Source of the DNA: Galaxea fascicularis
Taxonomy: Eukaryota; Cnidaria; Anthozoa; Scleractinia; Euphylliidae
Length of the DNA stretch: 64,000 nucleotides
Assembly (NCBI GenBank): GCA_948470475.1
Contig: OX419338.1
Coordinates: forward strand, 35,569,595 to 35,633,594
Direction: 5' to 3'
The notes below the pieces were generated by a model. That model had not been told where the DNA came from. It searched no databases and saw only the letters and a program-made list of their open reading frames with translations. Shown here one piece after another: positions 20,101-56,515 of the stretch. Position 1 is the first letter of the stretch. Every line of letters starts with the position of its first letter. The translations under genes were made by a program, and so were the position numbers.

Positions 20101-23100
20101 TGTGCGTGATTGCTGATAATCTATGAACGTTCAAGTAATTATGCCAAAGTTAGCCGTTTTGCAGTCGTAAGATGAAGCACAGCGAGTACCTTTATTCCTT
20201 CTTATGTCACTGTTAGGAGACTACGACCCAATCGTTTTGTTCATCGACGTTTCAGTGTTTTAGATGACTTTCAGACTCACAGAGTCATAGAAGATTTTTA
20301 AGGGGTCAGTAGACATGGGTCTTCCCAAATTTTCTTACTCAACAATTCAGTGTGTCGGATCAGGTAGCCAGCTTTTTTGGGTTTTCGACCCGAAAACCCA
20401 CTCTTATCTTGAAAACTCTGTTTACTTAGTCAGTTTACATCGATAGTTTCAGTTTTCATATTTTTTTTAAAGGTGTAGCTGGTTTTGTTTCTTTTAGGTG
20501 CCTGTAACTCTGATAGTTGCCGTGACAACGAAGTGTGTGTTGGTCTTAAGGACGGCAAAAAATCCTGCAAGTGTATTGAAATGAAGGACTGCCCTAAAGA
20601 GAAGGACCCTGTGTGCGGAACTGATGGGAAAGAATACCTGAATGAGTGCATTCTGAAAGCAAAAACATGTGCCACCAACGCGACAGTTGGAGTGAAACAC
20701 GCAGGGCCTTGTGGTATGGATGAGCCTACAGCAGATTTCCATTCCTTGTCGACACCTGAAGTGAAAATAAAGATAACTAAAGCACCATTTAGATCAAAAG
20801 AGGTTTAAGAGTAAAAGAGTCAGCTCTAGATAACGCTAAGAGGTTCATTGTTCAACGAATTTCGAAGTTTTGTTTAGTTTGTTTTCGAGCCGGGAGATAG
20901 AGCATCATGGTGTAAAAACCTTGTTCTTCCGTTCTTCTGATCTGACTCATAGTTTGGCTTAAACGACACTGTATAACCGTTTTTATGTTCGTGAGTTGGA
21001 GGAGCGATGGTTTATATTACGAATTGCATGTAAGGCATATATTCAGATTTTACGAACATTTGCGATGAGTTGGTTATTTATCGTTGCTCAATGGTGACAC
21101 TAGGATCTTATGTATTGTAGTGATCTGTGAAGACACTCGCTGTTCTGACGGTAAGAAGTGTGTGCCTAGCATTCTAAAGCTACCCAGCTGCCAGTGTCCG
21201 ACAGAAGATGACTGTCCCAGAGACTACGAACCAGTGTGTGGCAGCGATACAAAAACCTACATCAACCCTTGCAGACTGAGAGTGGAGGCTTGTAAGACAG
21301 GACAGGCAATTGATGTGGACAGAACAGGAGTTTGTAGTGAGTAATACAGTGCATGGGATATTGCTTTCTCTTTCGTTTCTTAATCTTCCAACCAATTTTC
21401 GACATTATAGTAGTCTCTTCATAATTCTGCTTCTAAAACTGAACTTTGAATTGTGACTTCATTAACCCTTTAAACCCTAAAAGTGATCAACATCAAATTT
21501 ACCCTTGTCATTATCAACGCTTAATAAAACAGTGATCATGAGAATTAAGGACTGGATCACAGAAGACGAATTTCCTTGATATTTTAAAAAGTTCTCTCAG
21601 CTTCTCCTGTAGGAATCGTGTAGGGGCAACAAATGAGAATTTACATTTTCATCTCAGGGTTTAACGGGTCAAGTCAAAATAATTCCTTTTCATTTCTGTA
21701 ATTGCGTGTGTCCTGTAACATGACTTCCTCCTTCCTCCTTCCTCCTTGTTCCTTCTTCCTTCTTCCTTCCTCTTTCCTCCTTCCTCCTTCCTTCTTCCTT
21801 GTTCCTTGTTCCTTCCTCCTTCCTCCTTCCTCCTTCCTCCTTGTTCCTTCCTCCTTCCTTCTTCCTCCTTCCTCCTTCTTCCTTCCTTCTTCCTTCCTCC
21901 TTCCTCCTTGTTCCTTCCTCCTTCTTCCTCCTTCCTCCTTCCTCCTTCCTTCTTCCTCCTTCCTCCTTCTTCCTTCCTTCTTCCTTCCTCCTTCCTCCTT
22001 GTTCCTTCCTCCTTCTTCCTCCTTCCTCCTTCCTCCTTCCTTCTTCCTCCTTCCTCCTTCTTCCTTCCTTCTTCCTTCCTCCTTCCTCCTTGTTCCTTCC
22101 TCCTTCTTCCTCCTTCCTCCTTCCTCCTTCCTCCTTCCTCCTTGTTCCTTCCTTCTTCCTCCTTCCTCCTTCTTCCTTCCTCCTTGTTCCTTCCTCCTTG
22201 TTCCTTGTTCCTTCTTCTTTCCTCCTTTCTCCTTCCTCCTTCCTTCTTCCTCCTTGTTCCTTCCTTCTTGTTCCTTCCCCCTTGTTCCTTCCTCCTTTCT
22301 TCTTCCTTCTTGTTCCTTCCCCCTTGTTCCTTCCTCCTTCCTTCTTCCTCCTTCCTTCTTCCTCCTTTCATCTTCCTCCTTCCTCCTTCCTCCTTCCTCC
22401 TTCTTCCTTCTTCCTTCTTCCTCCCTCCTTCTTCCTCCTTCCTCCTTCTTCCGGACTAACCGGCAAAGAAATCGTCCGTTGTTTTGCTATTAAACAGGAC
22501 ATGAACAGTTAAAAAACATTAAAATCTTCTCGTTGACTCAGAATCAGAAAAAAAAAGACTTTGCAATTTGTTGTACTTGATCAATTTCCAGATCCTTGTG
22601 ATGCTACTCAGTGTATGTATCATTCAGTATGCGAAAACAAACGCAATGGCTCCACAGCCTGCGAGTGCCCACGTACTGAGGAATGCCCAGATGTAACAGA
22701 CCCCGTGTGTGGTTCTGATGGCATGACGTATGACAACGAATGTAAGCTAAAGACTCAGAGCTGCGTCGCCGGTAAAGATGTAACCGTGAAACACAAAGGA
22801 AAATGCGGTACGCAAACGCTACAATGTTACTGCCATTACCAGTATGACGAGTGGTAGGGCTGTCTATTCTTTGAACAGTCCTCTTGACTCAAGTGTTTTT
22901 TCTTTCTTTGTAGGGGAAGGGGGGTGAGGGGCGGGCGGTGGTGCACCGAATTAAAATTGACGTGATGATATTGGATTTATAACTAAAGCGGCTGCTTTTC
23001 ATTTTTATGCCATGCAAACAAATCATACTAGTTGGTCACGGGACGTTGCGGACAAGACTCGTTTGAAGCGAGCATCGTTTGAACTTAATTACAACGAGGT

Positions 23101-51310: not shown

Positions 51311-54300
51311 ATGGCGACGGGAGGATGGGTTGCCGACCTCGATAAAAAAGAACACAAAAACTGGGTAATGGTGGGATGTGCATTGAACATAACCAAAAAT
51401 GGAATTACACCAAAAGTACAGACAAAGATGGAAGCTTGGTACCAGTCCCTCATTTCCAGTCCTCCTCTTAACTCACTGACACCATGCGCCTGCTCATCTC
51501 GAGGTCCAAAGTGTCGTACTTGTGTTACCTGGGAATCAGAGCTTACTCGTCACCACACATCAAAGCGACCAACGATTTGCTGGGGAAATAGTGACAGAAA
51601 ACAGTGGGGTTCTCCAGCAGGGACTTGGGAGATAGCCAAAGTGTTTATGCCAACTCTTGGAAGTCGGAAAAAGGACGTTGTTGACGCCAAGACAACTGAC
51701 ATTGGTGGCCTGTTGAATTTGCTGGCGTGGTGCCCGTTCATCAAACCGCCAGTCAATGGAAAGGTATTGAGTTTAGGACGAGATCAGTGCCGGAACCACT
51801 GGGCCCATGCTCCAAACCAAGAACTCAAGGATGCCGATGTCTCTGCCATATTTCGTCATCTTAATAGTCTGCTCAGTGATCCAGTGTTTACTGCTGACAA
51901 GGCAGCTCAAAACGCGTGCAAAGACTTGCAAGACCTGTTTCGTCAGGGTCTGGTAAACATCAGGGACTTCGAGGTAGAAGCACTTCATTTGCTGCGACAG
52001 TCATTAGTTGCTGACTTGACGAAGTGCCAAGATGACTTAACTGATGTTCAAGACAAAATTGTTCAACTGGATGCGGAAACAAAGAAGGGAAACAAAATTT
52101 TTCAAAAGCATATATGTGAATTGGAAGAAAAAGAGAACACGAGCAGTGAACAAGTAAACAATTTGAGTGAAAGACTGAAAGAGATGGAAGTGGCTGTAAA
52201 AGAACAAAGTACTATAAACAAAGAAGAAATTGACAGAATAGAGGCAAACTTAACAGACGCTAAAGAAAACCTTTCCCTTGAAATATCCACAATACTGCGT
52301 GCTGTTGATGATTTCAATAAGGAATTGAACGAGAGAGATGATTTGAGAGGCACATTGAAGGTTATCCGTGAGGACGTGGACGATGTGAGAAATGGCATAC
52401 GGAGCGTTCTTGAGGAACTCACTACGACAAAGTCCCATGTGGCCAACTTGGACACCAGCATTGCAAGCGTGAAAAGTGAAGTAAAAGAAGTGAAATGTGA
52501 CTTAAAGGAAGTAGCTGATGAAGTAACTTTCAACAGAAACACAATTTCTAGTTTACAAAGCGACGTCATGGACGTCAAGGAAGAAGTGGAAACATTGAAA
52601 GATAGTTCCTCAAAAACAAACGTCGATGATGGCCACCACCTGTGCACGGCCCCGTGTCGACTGACAGCTTTCACTGGCCGCAAGTCAGCTCTGGAATGGT
52701 TAGAAAGACACCTAATCTCGCAAACTTTTGAAAAGCAACAAGGAACATCCTGCAGCACCAAAGCGATATGTGGTCTTGGAGGCTGCGGCAAGACGTCTCT
52801 GGCTGTGGAGTTTGTTTGGAGGTACATGGGTCGGTTCCCTGGTGGCGTGTTCTGGATCAACGCAGAAAGTGATGAAAATATCCAAAGATCAGTGGTTGAG
52901 ATACTTGCTCTTGAGAACATTCCTGCCTCAACATCTGAAAACATCGACGACACCTTGAACCGATTCCTTGCTTGGTTGTGCAAGAAGACAGTACCATGGC
53001 TTCTGGTAATGGACAATGCAGATGATTTGCAAGGTTCAGTGCTTCCAACAGGCGTTAAGAAGATATGCAGAGGGTCTTGGCAAAGGAATGGCAACGCATT
53101 TAAGCAAGGCCACATTCTTTTCACAACTAGACAGAATGCACAAGACACAAGGTCGTTCCTGAAGGTCTCGTGTGATGACTGTTTGGAGTTGGAGTGCTTC
53201 AGTGAAGAAGAAGGCGCACAGTTTCTCATGAAAAGAATTGAAGCAAAAGATTCCCAGGATCCAGGAGCAATTCCTCTGGTCAATGAACTGGGAGCCTTGC
53301 CTTTAGCCCTTGAGCAGGCAGCAGCTTTTATAGATGCAAGCCCTATTCCATTGAGCTTCAAAGATTACCTTGAAAAGTACCAAGCTGTAAAGTTACGTCT
53401 CTTGAGCCAACAACCTGCTACAGCGCTTAGTGTGGAGGCCCAGCATCGGTTGTCGGTTCACACAACTTGGCAGATGAATTTTGAATTTGTGAAAAAACAC
53501 TCACCAGCTGCAGCTAGCATGATGTATGTTGCAGCCTTTTTACAGTCTGAGAATGTTCCTTTTGATGTTATCAATCCTGGTTTTCCTGAATTGGATCAAG
53601 AGGACTTGAGGGAATGTGCTCGTTCAAAGCTTGATATCGCCGCTATGCTTAGAGTACTGTCCAGTTACTCTCTTTTCTCAGTATATCATCCTTCCAGAAC
53701 TTTCAGTGTCCATAAACTCGTTCAAGAAGTGGTCAGAGACAGTTTAACATCAGCAGGTAGGATAGAGGCCATGGGTGCAGCGATTCGAGTTCTTCATCGG
53801 GCTTTCATGGACAAGAGCGTTCCTTGTTTCAGATCGGTTAAGTACAATAGCTTGACAAACCCTTCAGAAATCATACTTGGAAACCTTTCTGAAATTAAGG
53901 AGGAAGAGAGAAGCATTCTTATTAATCTCGTGTTAAATTTTCACCAGTTAAAGAATCACCTGGTGGATGTATTTAATTCATCAGAAGGAAATCCTCTTTT
54001 TAATGACTACACTTTGAAATTGTGTGACCTTGTGTGCTCTTTACTACGCAATAACGTATTCTTCTGCAGACTCCAAGCTGAATTTTCTGACTTTCATTTG
54101 AAAGTTGTTCGAATCCGTGGAAATTCTGATCCAAATTGGCTTCTTCAGTTTATGGTTTCCACATGTGTTCGTAAAAGAAATTTTGCAGGCCGTGAGAATT
54201 ACGAGGAGGCGAAGAAACTTGCCCAGGAAACTGTACAGAAACTGGATGAGTTAAAAAATTCCGGTGCCGCCATAACAAGCGATACCCAATATAAAGTTCT

Positions 54301-56515
54301 TGAGCACATGGCCTCCTATTACGCTTTTGAAGGAGAGTGGGAGAAAAATTACAAGGCGTTGCTAGAGCTTGAGGATTTGCCAATAAGTGATCATAACATT
54401 GTTGGTCTGCAGATCCTTATAGGAAGAGCAGAAAATTACATGTCGACTGGTAATTTTCAGTGTGTTTTGAGGCGTCATGAAAAAGCTCTTGAGCTTGCAA
54501 GAAGAATTTACCCTTCTGATCATTGTGAGCTCATGCGTGTTTTGCAGTTCATCACTACTCATTTCCAGGAAGCAGGTAAGCTTCAGGAAGGTAGAAAATA
54601 TGCTGAAGAATTGCTAGAAATTGCCAAGAAACAACCAACCGTATCAAACCCTTATTTCAAGGGAGTAACTAGTGCTTTTTCTATATTGAGTCATTTCGAT
54701 CCGTACAGTGCTGAAGTCACTCTTCTTCACATTTTGGAAGACAGATGGCCTCTCCTGCACAGAGGCTGCACAAGCCAAATGGTTGACAGTCAAATCGATT
54801 CCTGCTGTGCAGACCTAGTTGACGAAGGAAGTGCTGACCAAGCAGCAATTGTTTTGGAAGAATTGTTAGTATGTTTCGTGAGGTCTAGCTCTCAACCGAT
54901 CGATCGGACAAATTTGGAAAACAAAGAGAAAGTAAACTTCTACCGAAGAGCTGCAGAAATTTTGTACTCCATTCAAACGAAACTGTTGGGCGATATTCAC
55001 CCACAAATGAGAGATGTGTATAACTTTCTTGTAGTCGTACACCAACTTCTTGGGAATGGGGAACAAGTCAAGAAATTCGTGGAAAAGATGACGCAATGCA
55101 TTGGATCGTCATGTAACAATTATTTCTCAAAAGCACGTGCCGATGAAAGTGTTCTTTATGCCAGACAATACAAAGATCGGGGAAACAATTTCTTCAAATC
55201 AAGAGACTATGCGAAGGCACTAGAAAACTACAACACAGCGTTAAAACTTTGTCCAAACGATGCCGTGCTATTAACCAACAGAGCTGCAACATACATGAAA
55301 CTTTCGCAAAACGGTCAAAACAAGGAAAGTGAGCAGCACAACCTTTTCAAGCACGCTCTTGAAGACTCGAAGAAGGCCATCGCTGCAGATCCCACATTGG
55401 TGAAGGGTTATTACTGGAAGGCAGTTTGTCTTGCTAAACTTAGAGAGAGAGGACCGTCGCTTGCTGCCGCTGCAATCGCCAAACATCTGTCTCCTTCACA
55501 GTGCACCCAAATACCTGCTGTTGTGGAGCAGTTTGGAGCCTACAACGCAACCGTTGTAAACACAGTGGAGGACCTCCTTTTCGTTCCTGAAACAACAGAA
55601 AGTAACCGCGTCATTTTGGTGAAAGAAGGGATATATGAGGTGCCTACCCCTGTGACAGTTCAAAAGAATGTAGTGATAGTTGGTGTTGGTGACGTACAAA
55701 TTATCTGCATCAGTGGTGTTCCATTGCAAGCTGATGAAACCGTTTACATTGAGAACATTACGCTATCGCCCACAATGGAGTCCATCAGAGAGCTGAAAAA
55801 CAGAGCTAAAGAATGTCGCAATCGCGGCCACTTCGACTCCGCCTTAACACTCTACAGCGAGGCTCTGACCAAGTGTCCAAATGATGCACAGCTTCTGACA
55901 GCAAGAGCCACAACATACTTGAAATCTGCCAACAAACAGAAAGACCTTCCCTCGGAGCGGCGACGTTTATTGGAGCTTGCCTTGAAAGATTCCGAAGCTG
56001 CCATCGTAGCAAATTCTTGTTGGGTGCTTGGATACTACAACAAGGCAGCAAGCTTAGCAGAACTTGGAAGAAAACAACAAGCTCTGGCGGCTGCCGCAGT
56101 CTTCAAACACTTGAGTTGCGGTCGAGACATTCCTGTAGTTATTCAACGATGTGGAGACGTGAGAGTTAGAGCTGTCGAGAATTCTAACGAGCTGCAAGGC
56201 GTCCTGCACAGAATCGAGGAGCTTCAAGAAGTAGATCAAGTTGTTTTACTCAAAGAAGGCGTATACCTTTTAGACAAAACTGTTGAAGTTGCACAACCGA
56301 TCGTTATAGTTGGTCACGGGAAAGTAACAGTATCTTGTCAGACTGGGCGAAGTCCTTTTAACTTTACCCAAGAACACTATGTAGAAAATGTAGAACTTTG
56401 TGAAGATTTGCAGAACTGCAGCGATTCGAACAATATACAGGCAGAAGTGATATCTTTGCCTGGACTCTCAGAGAACGAATGGCCCAACCTCAGCAGTGAG
56501 TGTAAGGTGAACTAA
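51311..56515 (+). CDS. HEPN (DZIP3-like) - coiled coil - NB-ARC - TPR - beta-helix NLR-type protein
   Basis: Uninterrupted 1,734-residue reading frame. Residues ~15-215: DZIP3-like HEPN domain with RNHWAH at 161-166, the R-x4-H motif that forms the RNase site in active HEPN proteins. Residues ~230-430: heptad-rich coiled coil. Residues ~445-810: NB-ARC with P-loop GLGGCGKTS (488-496), Walker B LLVMDNAD (564-571), sensor HILFTTRQ (601-608), GALPLALEQA (661-670) and a winged-helix HKLVQEVVRDSL near 799. Residues ~830-1270: TPR-like helices. Residues ~1275-1695: two [TPR + beta-strand] units. A cytosolic STAND/NLR-type sensor is inferred: the repeats sense, NB-ARC oligomerises with ATP, and HEPN cleaves RNA or acts as a signalling module. 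Coding by one large exon hints at retroposition or the single-exon style of such expanded families. The 419-codon antisense ORF at 52102-53361 is a shadow. Confidence 0.88.
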   Translation: MATGGWVADLDKKEHKNWVMVGCALNITKNGITPKVQTKMEAWYQSLISSPPLNSLTPCACSSRGPKCRTCVTWESELTRHHTSKRPTICWGNSDRKQWGSPAGTWEIAKVFMPTLGSRKKDVVDAKTTDIGGLLNLLAWCPFIKPPVNGKVLSLGRDQCRNHWAHAPNQELKDADVSAIFRHLNSLLSDPVFTADKAAQNACKDLQDLFRQGLVNIRDFEVEALHLLRQSLVADLTKCQDDLTDVQDKIVQLDAETKKGNKIFQKHICELEEKENTSSEQVNNLSERLKEMEVAVKEQSTINKEEIDRIEANLTDAKENLSLEISTILRAVDDFNKELNERDDLRGTLKVIREDVDDVRNGIRSVLEELTTTKSHVANLDTSIASVKSEVKEVKCDLKEVADEVTFNRNTISSLQSDVMDVKEEVETLKDSSSKTNVDDGHHLCTAPCRLTAFTGRKSALEWLERHLISQTFEKQQGTSCSTKAICGLGGCGKTSLAVEFVWRYMGRFPGGVFWINAESDENIQRSVVEILALENIPASTSENIDDTLNRFLAWLCKKTVPWLLVMDNADDLQGSVLPTGVKKICRGSWQRNGNAFKQGHILFTTRQNAQDTRSFLKVSCDDCLELECFSEEEGAQFLMKRIEAKDSQDPGAIPLVNELGALPLALEQAAAFIDASPIPLSFKDYLEKYQAVKLRLLSQQPATALSVEAQHRLSVHTTWQMNFEFVKKHSPAAASMMYVAAFLQSENVPFDVINPGFPELDQEDLRECARSKLDIAAMLRVLSSYSLFSVYHPSRTFSVHKLVQEVVRDSLTSAGRIEAMGAAIRVLHRAFMDKSVPCFRSVKYNSLTNPSEIILGNLSEIKEEERSILINLVLNFHQLKNHLVDVFNSSEGNPLFNDYTLKLCDLVCSLLRNNVFFCRLQAEFSDFHLKVVRIRGNSDPNWLLQFMVSTCVRKRNFAGRENYEEAKKLAQETVQKLDELKNSGAAITSDTQYKVLEHMASYYAFEGEWEKNYKALLELEDLPISDHNIVGLQILIGRAENYMSTGNFQCVLRRHEKALELARRIYPSDHCELMRVLQFITTHFQEAGKLQEGRKYAEELLEIAKKQPTVSNPYFKGVTSAFSILSHFDPYSAEVTLLHILEDRWPLLHRGCTSQMVDSQIDSCCADLVDEGSADQAAIVLEELLVCFVRSSSQPIDRTNLENKEKVNFYRRAAEILYSIQTKLLGDIHPQMRDVYNFLVVVHQLLGNGEQVKKFVEKMTQCIGSSCNNYFSKARADESVLYARQYKDRGNNFFKSRDYAKALENYNTALKLCPNDAVLLTNRAATYMKLSQNGQNKESEQHNLFKHALEDSKKAIAADPTLVKGYYWKAVCLAKLRERGPSLAAAAIAKHLSPSQCTQIPAVVEQFGAYNATVVNTVEDLLFVPETTESNRVILVKEGIYEVPTPVTVQKNVVIVGVGDVQIICISGVPLQADETVYIENITLSPTMESIRELKNRAKECRNRGHFDSALTLYSEALTKCPNDAQLLTARATTYLKSANKQKDLPSERRRLLELALKDSEAAIVANSCWVLGYYNKAASLAELGRKQQALAAAAVFKHLSCGRDIPVVIQRCGDVRVRAVENSNELQGVLHRIEELQEVDQVVLLKEGVYLLDKTVEVAQPIVIVGHGKVTVSCQTGRSPFNFTQEHYVENVELCEDLQNCSDSNNIQAEVISLPGLSENEWPNLSSECKVN

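What the first reader, a model, noticed from the sequence alone, without database searches (positions are those of the whole stretch)
51311..56515. NLR-type protein with a HEPN head carrying an intact R-x4-H motif
HEPN + NB-ARC + TPR resembles the logic of prokaryotic STAND defence proteins with nuclease effectors, and of animal/plant NLRs. RNHWAH (161-166) is a candidate RNase site. This could be a cnidarian immune sensor that degrades RNA when activated; it is the strongest candidate in the window for a poorly described system.
Basis: partly seen in the sequence, partly recalled or inferred. Interest (0 to 1): 0.75.

Follow-up and report, generated by a model that had tools for sequence, protein, structure and literature searches.

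The report
Cnidarian NLR with RNase-like HEPN head
This is an intact animal gene for a large switch protein that probably senses trouble inside the cell through its tail and then cuts RNA with its head; the general design was predicted in 2013, but this version and its conservation make it a good candidate to test.

Summary
Window 51311-56515 (+) is one open 1734-codon frame: HEPN head, coiled coil, NB-ARC-type STAND switch, TPR region, and a duplicated TPR-plus-short-beta module. The head is not HEPN_DZIP3 but the CXorf38 family (Pfam DUF4559, E 2e-21), a Swt1-like HEPN with an inserted Cys cluster. R161 and H166 are invariant in 121 of 121 aligned sequences. The R-[NH]-x(1,2)-W-x-H motif is in 75 of 79 further DUF4559 proteins; the other 4 are short sequences cut or garbled there. 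It is intact at 9 of the 10 such loci found in the genome. The four DUF7779 switches found in the genome each have a HEPN head in front. Prokaryotic relatives of the switch carry TIR heads in 6 of 10 scanned. Best explanation: a STAND sensor whose activation pairs HEPN heads into active RNases; catalysis and immune role are inferred. CXorf38-NACHT fusions in cnidarians and bacterial HEPN-STAND-TPR proteins were listed in 2013 (PMC3710099), so this is a new variant of a known kind.

The parts
51311..56515 (+). Whole coding sequence, 1734 aa, one uninterrupted frame from ATG to stop
51311..52030 (+). HEPN head, residues 1-240 (Pfam DUF4559 / CXorf38 family; match 11-319)
   Evidence: most conserved part of the protein, mean pairwise identity 79%
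51485..51523 (+). Cys cluster C59-x-C61-x6-C68-x2-C71 inside the HEPN domain (putative zinc ribbon)
   Evidence: C59, C68, C71 in 121 of 121, C61 in 120 of 121 sequences; a loose Cys/His pattern fits 69 of 79 further DUF4559 proteins
51791..51808 (+). R161-N-H-W-A-H166, HEPN Rx4H motif, candidate RNase site; R at the end of a predicted helix (150-164), H in the following loop
51959..52630 (+). Coiled-coil linker, residues about 217-440
   Evidence: predicted helix 217-269; coiled-coil family matches 221-434
52631..53860 (+). NB-ARC-type STAND NTPase plus winged-helix region, residues about 441-850
   Evidence: NF040586 448-831 E 9.5e-68; DUF7779 728-814
52772..52795 (+). P-loop GLGGCGKT, residues 488-495
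   Evidence: each position 118-121 of 121
53000..53017 (+). Walker B-like LLVMDN, residues 564-569
   Evidence: D568 and N569 in 121 of 121
53123..53131 (+). TTR motif (sensor-like), residues 605-607
   Evidence: 121 of 121
53291..53311 (+). GxP motif GALPLAL, residues 661-667
53708..53725 (+). VHKLVQ, counterpart of the plant MHD motif (motif equivalence recalled), residues 800-805
   Evidence: H801 and Q805 in 121 of 121
53861..55120 (+). Middle TPR-like region, residues 851-1270, the most variable part; candidate sensor
   Evidence: TPR_12 1035-1107 just under cut-off; mean pairwise identity 47%
55160..55762 (+). C-terminal module 1: TPRs plus short beta (pectate-lyase-like, below cut-off) segment, residues 1284-1484
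55784..56395 (+). C-terminal module 2, duplicate of module 1, residues 1492-1695
   Evidence: 38% identity over 204 columns, E 6e-39

Best explanation
A cytosolic STAND sensor with its own RNA-cutting head. At rest the NB-ARC/winged-helix core holds the protein closed with ADP. The variable TPR region and the C-terminal TPR/beta modules detect a ligand or a disturbed host target. Nucleotide exchange then lets cores oligomerise, and the coiled coil brings CXorf38-type HEPN heads together. Each pair forms a composite Rx4H active site that cuts RNA without metal (host RNA such as tRNA, rRNA or mRNA, or viral RNA), stopping translation and infection, with cell shutdown or death. Shown here: domain order, intact motifs, conservation pattern, paralogues with the same design, prokaryotic relatives with TIR and CHAT heads. 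Inferred: nucleotide switching, oligomerisation, RNA cleavage, the trigger, and a defensive role.
For: R161/H166 invariant in 121 of 121. R-[NH]-x(1,2)-W-x-H in 75 of 79 further DUF4559 proteins; the 4 without it are 174-208 aa and cut or garbled there. W164 and H166 are among only 8 invariant of 188 ungapped columns across eight HEPN heads of this genome. Pfam HEPN_Swt1 is the second most frequent hit among DUF4559 members (28 of 63 at E<=0.1); in the four shown the matched stretch contains the motif, one of them, P0122, over the Pfam cut-off (E 2.5e-7) and three just under. The AlphaFold model (mean pLDDT 86.9) is helical, with R161 ending one helix and H166 in the next loop, as described for HEPN domains (PMC3710099, passages). 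The switch motifs are near-invariant. Head and switch are conserved while the middle TPR region varies (79% and 71% versus 47%). The 4 DUF7779 switches found in the genome have a HEPN exon or domain in front. Five gene models of Oculina and Montipora join such a head to the switch. Prokaryotic relatives carry TIR in 6 of 10 and CHAT in 1 of 10 scanned.
Confidence: 0.55

Rival explanations
1. The HEPN head binds RNA or acts as a dimerisation and signalling platform without cutting RNA; downstream proteins execute the response.
For: One paralogue lacks the H. Some HEPN domains in the superfamily are non-catalytic (PMC3710099, passages). Two relatives, P0153 and P0182, join this head to a Bcl-2 domain, so it can sit in signalling proteins.
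Against: R and H are kept in 121 of 121 aligned and 75 of 79 further relatives, and across head types only 19-31% identical to the window head in this genome, stronger than binding alone would require.
Confidence: 0.22
2. The protein is a STAND switch with an active RNase head, but works in stress, symbiosis or development control of host RNA rather than in immunity.
For: Only one close copy was found in this genome. No infection-linked expression data were available here.
Against: Prokaryotic relatives of the switch carry TIR and CHAT heads, which are heads of defence and cell-death proteins (recalled). Repeated contig lengths suggest several copies on shared contigs in other corals (inferred). 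The middle region evolves fastest.
Confidence: 0.15
3. A processed or dying gene copy that no longer matters.
For: It has no intron between head and switch, while the head and switch frames of the three paralogues are separated.
Against: 1734 intact codons; 107 of 120 listed relatives reach the C-terminal part in one protein; catalytic and nucleotide-binding residues are invariant.
Confidence: 0.05

Closest known systems
CXorf38 family of HEPN domains (Pfam DUF4559, PF15112), including cnidarian CXorf38-NACHT fusions (Anantharaman et al. 2013, PMC3710099, passages)
   Same: Same head: DUF4559 match, Rx4-6H motif, Cys cluster inside the HEPN domain, fused to a STAND NTPase in a cnidarian.
   Different: The NTPase here is NB-ARC/DUF7779 with TPRs and short beta modules; the 2013 table lists NACHT, ankyrin, CARD, DEATH and dsRBD partners. 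Ankyrin-type fusions in this genome are a separate set on contig C1.
Bacterial Swt1-like HEPN fused to STAND ATPase, TPR and S1 (e.g. Npun_F6454, listed in the table of PMC3710099, passages)
   Same: HEPN, STAND switch and TPR in one protein, in the same table row (Swt1-like) as CXorf38; described as mostly active.
   Different: Bacterial; S1 instead of beta modules. Not compared by sequence here; whether the window gene descends from this design or from a head exchange is open.
DZIP3-like HEPN with NACHT or NB-ARC in corals and other anthozoans (PMC8260672; PMC10236652; passages)
   Same: HEPN head on a STAND NTPase in anthozoans; PMC10236652 also reports that coral NB-ARC proteins mostly carry TPRs.
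   Different: Another HEPN family: PF18738 finds 29 places in this genome, none in this window.
Prokaryotic NB-ARC-TPR proteins (NCBIfam NF040586 FxSxx_TPR; TIR-NB-ARC-TPR loci L026 and L034)
   Same: Switch core matches over 448-831 (E 9.5e-68); order of head, switch, TPR.
   Different: Heads are TIR or CHAT where recognised (one has a MinD-like ATPase), no HEPN hit in the 10 scanned; score is below the NF040586 cut-off.
RNase L (mechanism recalled; named in PMC3710099)
   Same: Sensor-driven pairing of HEPN-type RNase domains that cut RNA.
   Different: RNase L is activated by 2-5A through ankyrin repeats and a pseudokinase (recalled); here a STAND switch with TPRs.
HEPN-NB-ARC-TPR-beta-helix-MYND paralogues (L009, L010; coral models P0214, P0215, P0261, P0319; L011 read only in part)
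   Same: HEPN head, coiled coil, NB-ARC, DUF7779, TPR, beta segment.
   Different: Beta helix and MYND finger, head and switch in separate frames, and a more divergent head that Pfam misses or scores below its cut-off.

Membership tests
CXorf38-type HEPN (DUF4559) | Match to the DUF4559 profile over the curated cut-off | tested here: met
   E 2e-21, 77 bits against cut-off 27
CXorf38-type HEPN (DUF4559) | Rx4-6H motif intact and conserved | tested here: met
   121 of 121 aligned, 75 of 79 further, 9 of 10 own-genome loci
CXorf38-type HEPN (DUF4559) | Zinc-ribbon-like Cys cluster inserted in the HEPN domain | tested here: met
   C59/C61/C68/C71 conserved; a loose Cys/His pattern fits 69 of 79 further members, 10 not. 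Metal binding itself not tested
[quoted passage not shown]
HEPN superfamily | Profile link to an accepted HEPN family | tested here: met
   HEPN_Swt1 in 28 of 63 DUF4559 members at E<=0.1; P0122 over cut-off, on the motif stretch. The window protein itself gave only DUF4559
HEPN RNase | Metal-independent RNA cleavage | not testable with these tools
   needs a bench assay
HEPN_DZIP3 (PF18738) | Match to the HEPN_DZIP3 profile | tested here: not met
   29 places in the genome, none in the window; not among the Pfam rows shown for the protein
STAND NTPase, NB-ARC type | P-loop, Walker B, TTR, GxP and VHxLVQ motifs in order, with winged-helix region | tested here: met
STAND NTPase, NB-ARC type | Pfam NB-ARC over cut-off | tested here: inconclusive
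   Met in relative P0001 and paralogues L009, L010; 12 of 30 proteins in A2 at E<=0.01; not among the 25 of 29 rows shown for the window protein
Animal NLR in the strict sense | NACHT plus leucine-rich repeats | tested here: not met
   TPRs, no LRR among the Pfam rows shown
Immune receptor | Responds to infection and protects | not tested
   no expression or knockout data in reach

The most novel reading that the evidence does not exclude
Cnidarians keep a class of sensors that are 'RNase resistosomes': one polypeptide in which a bacterial-type NB-ARC-TPR switch assembles CXorf38 HEPN nucleases, so that sensing leads directly to RNA destruction without adaptors or second messengers. The chassis that often carries TIR in prokaryotic relatives carries HEPN here (by head exchange, or inherited from a bacterial HEPN-STAND-TPR design), and the four such switches found in this genome all have one, in two forms (with short beta modules, or with a beta helix and MYND finger).
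Probability: 0.4. Interest if true: 0.75.

Novelty: new variant of a known kind. Interest (0 to 1): 0.5.

Why it matters
If it cuts RNA when triggered, it would be an animal NLR-like sensor whose own head is the executioner, a direct animal parallel to prokaryotic STAND defence proteins. It would also give a function to the CXorf38 family, whose human member's function is called largely unknown (PMC12196990, passages). The head is small (about 240 residues) and the candidate catalytic pair is defined, so the claim can be tested with one protein and two inactive variants. It also shows that Pfam misses or under-scores the HEPN head in the beta-helix/MYND paralogues, so surveys of coral NLRs that rely on such models may undercount nuclease-headed receptors.

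Tried and rejected
HEPN_DZIP3 identity: rejected. Fold searches as proof of HEPN: not usable alone. The profile of A4 against PDB sequences gave, in the 60 of 191 rows shown, TPR proteins, coiled-coil or helical stretches and AAA chaperones, no HEPN by name. PADLOC and NCBIfam scans of A4 gave mainly coiled-coil and TPR or NB-ARC hits, no family named HEPN among the 25 rows shown of 85 and 136. An hhalign run printed nothing and is not used; the hmmsearch in the same call is used, with 7000 shuffled sequences as control (best shuffle 8.8 bits against 30.6-46.6). A regular expression for MYND matched 0 of 120 although Pfam finds MYND, so the expression was wrong and is not used. The 419-aa antisense ORF at 52102-53361 is taken as a shadow of the coding strand. 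dN/dS could be computed only for the C1 paralogues (0.18-0.25 in the four of ten pairs that gave a value, three of them with dS above 1.5), not for the window gene, because no close DNA relative was in reach. Of the 16 prokaryotic loci, ten with a sizeable stretch before the P-loop were scanned; six were left out (L032, L035, L038 without a P-loop in the frame picked; L024, L027, L033 with a short stretch). The count of all NB-ARC domains in the genome did not complete.

Full report
What is there. The window is part of contig C4 of a 416.6 Mb, 170-contig genome. Where relatives bear organism names they are stony corals (Oculina, Porites, Desmophyllum, Orbicella, Montipora), so the host is taken to be an anthozoan cnidarian; no output names it. 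The reading frame 51311-56515 (+) is intact: 1734 codons, a stop one codon before the ATG. In the alignment 65 of 120 listed relatives begin with M exactly at its first residue; one named relative, P0044, has a different N-terminus.

Domain anatomy. Pfam finds DUF4559 at 11-319, DUF7779 at 728-814 and several TPRs. NCBIfam NF040586, a prokaryotic NB-ARC/TPR family, matches 448-831 with E 9.5e-68 but under its equivalog cut-off. The C-terminus holds two copies (38% identical, E 6e-39) of a module with TPRs followed by a short beta segment, with a weak pectinesterase match below cut-off. In paralogue L010 the matching segment lies just before the region that Pfam calls a right-handed beta helix.

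Conservation of the candidate active site. Of 230 relatives found, the 120 listed were aligned with the window protein: R161 and H166 are in 121 of 121. A second search with an alignment of five heads returned 79 further DUF4559 proteins, a mix of distant and close ones (of the 50 aligned, identity to the head is either 27-38% or 62-79%). 47 have Rx4H and 28 Rx5H forms of R-[NH]-x(1,2)-W-x-H; the remaining 4, of 174-208 aa, are cut or garbled at the motif. The Cys cluster fits a loose pattern in 69 of the 79; among the 10 that do not fit, six have other spacing, and P0148, P0192, P0197 and P0198 lack part or all of it. Among eight heads of this genome only 8 of 188 ungapped columns are invariant, and W164 and H166 are two of them; two of the ten heads (partial L010 and degenerate L013) were left out of that count.

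Family in the genome. DUF4559 is over cut-off at 7 places, all 9 candidates scored: the window gene, five on C1 and one on C2. Three more divergent heads lie in front of the NB-ARC paralogues on C7, C3 and C5; of L010 only the 3' part of the head was read. A profile of DUF4559 heads scores L009 and L011 at 44.2 and 46.6 bits and five coral heads at 30.6-34.3 bits, the best of 7000 shuffles being 8.8. With the motif masked, six of the seven still score 13-28 bits; P0261 is no longer reported. The motif is intact at 9 of these 10 loci; the C2 copy reads ERLWGTAP and has lost the H. The C1 set is another architecture: a HEPN, coiled-coil and hydrophobic-tail exon, followed in the three loci scanned by an exon with NPHP3/TANC1-type NTPase and ankyrin repeats. 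DUF7779, the winged-helix part of this switch, was found at 4 places, all 13 candidates scored, and each has a HEPN head or head exon in front. That head exon and switch exon are spliced together is inferred for this genome; of 120 listed relatives of the L010 switch (553 found), five are longer than 1500 aa, all gene models of Oculina (3) and Montipora (2), and all five begin with such a head holding RN[EK]WGH. The other 115 are shorter (at most 1442 aa); they were not checked for a head, and their upstream DNA was not seen. HEPN_DZIP3 has 29 places in the genome, none here.

Evolutionary pattern. Among 107 relatives that reach the C-terminal part the head is the most conserved region (79% mean pairwise identity over 1500 sampled pairs), then the switch (71%); the coiled coil (51%) and middle TPR region (47%) vary most. 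This fits a fixed effector and switch with a changing sensor. One close copy was found here (27 of 156 candidates scored). In other corals repeated contig lengths suggest several copies side by side (inference). A scan of prokaryotic genomes with the switch alignment gave 16 loci. Ten were scanned with Pfam at E<=1e-4: TIR in 6, CHAT in 1, a MinD-like ATPase in 1, no recognised head in 2, HEPN in none.

How it most likely works. A STAND switch turned on by a signal read in the TPR or beta region oligomerises and pairs HEPN heads, whose R/H motif cleaves RNA. Shown: parts, order, conservation, co-occurrence. Inferred: nucleotide switching, oligomerisation, cleavage, defensive purpose. The main rival is a non-catalytic HEPN.

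What is known. CXorf38-type HEPN fused to NACHT and DEATH in cnidarians, and its suggested part in RNA-virus defence, are in print, as are bacterial Swt1-like HEPN proteins with STAND ATPase, TPR and S1 (PMC3710099, passages). DZIP3-like HEPN with NACHT is reported as common in anthozoan NLRs (PMC8260672, passages); PMC10236652 (passages) reports many DZIP3-like HEPN heads among coral NACHT/NB-ARC proteins and mostly TPRs on NB-ARC ones. Searches for CXorf38 with NACHT (1 paper, the 2013 one), DUF4559 (2 papers, listing only), HEPN with NB-ARC and beta-helix (4 papers with at least two of the terms, none listed with all three), HEPN with cnidarian and NLR (4 papers) and HEPN with MYND (3 papers, unrelated from the listing) showed no description of this NB-ARC/TPR/beta version in what I saw. 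The library lacks most subscription journals, and no supplementary tables could be read. I therefore file it as a new variant of a known kind.

Noticed in passing
L013 (G000:C2 29886000-29895900), 3893-4885 (-): A DUF4559 paralogue with a hydrophobic tail whose HEPN histidine is lost (W-G-T instead of W-x-H): a natural inactive-site copy, possibly a decoy or regulator.
   Followed up: partly
L010 (G000:C3 39293000-39302900): The 3' part of the HEPN exon is present twice in tandem and a 5' part of the NB-ARC exon is repeated, with a retroelement-like frame running on from the repeated NB-ARC piece: a duplication in progress.
   Followed up: partly
L009, L010; proteins P0214, P0215, P0261, P0319: Receptor architecture with HEPN, NB-ARC, DUF7779, TPR, right-handed beta helix and MYND finger; its HEPN head is missed or scored below cut-off by Pfam.
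   Followed up: partly
L012, L014, L015, L016 (contig C1): HEPN, coiled-coil and hydrophobic-tail exons followed by a P-loop exon; in the three scanned (L014, L015, L016) this is an NPHP3/TANC1-type NTPase with ankyrin repeats, probably like the CXorf38-NACHT and ankyrin fusions of the 2013 paper.
   Followed up: partly
P0153, P0182: DUF4559 HEPN heads joined to a Bcl-2 apoptosis domain.
   Followed up: no
window 740-44591 (+): A series of exons that look like von Willebrand A, Kazal/follistatin and laminin-G/EGF domains, perhaps one large extracellular matrix gene (by eye only).
   Followed up: no
window 21724-22452: A 7-base tandem repeat of about 104 copies that produces spurious long ORFs on both strands.
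   Followed up: no
L007 2-715 (+): A retroelement integrase-like frame next to a HEPN exon on C1.
   Followed up: no
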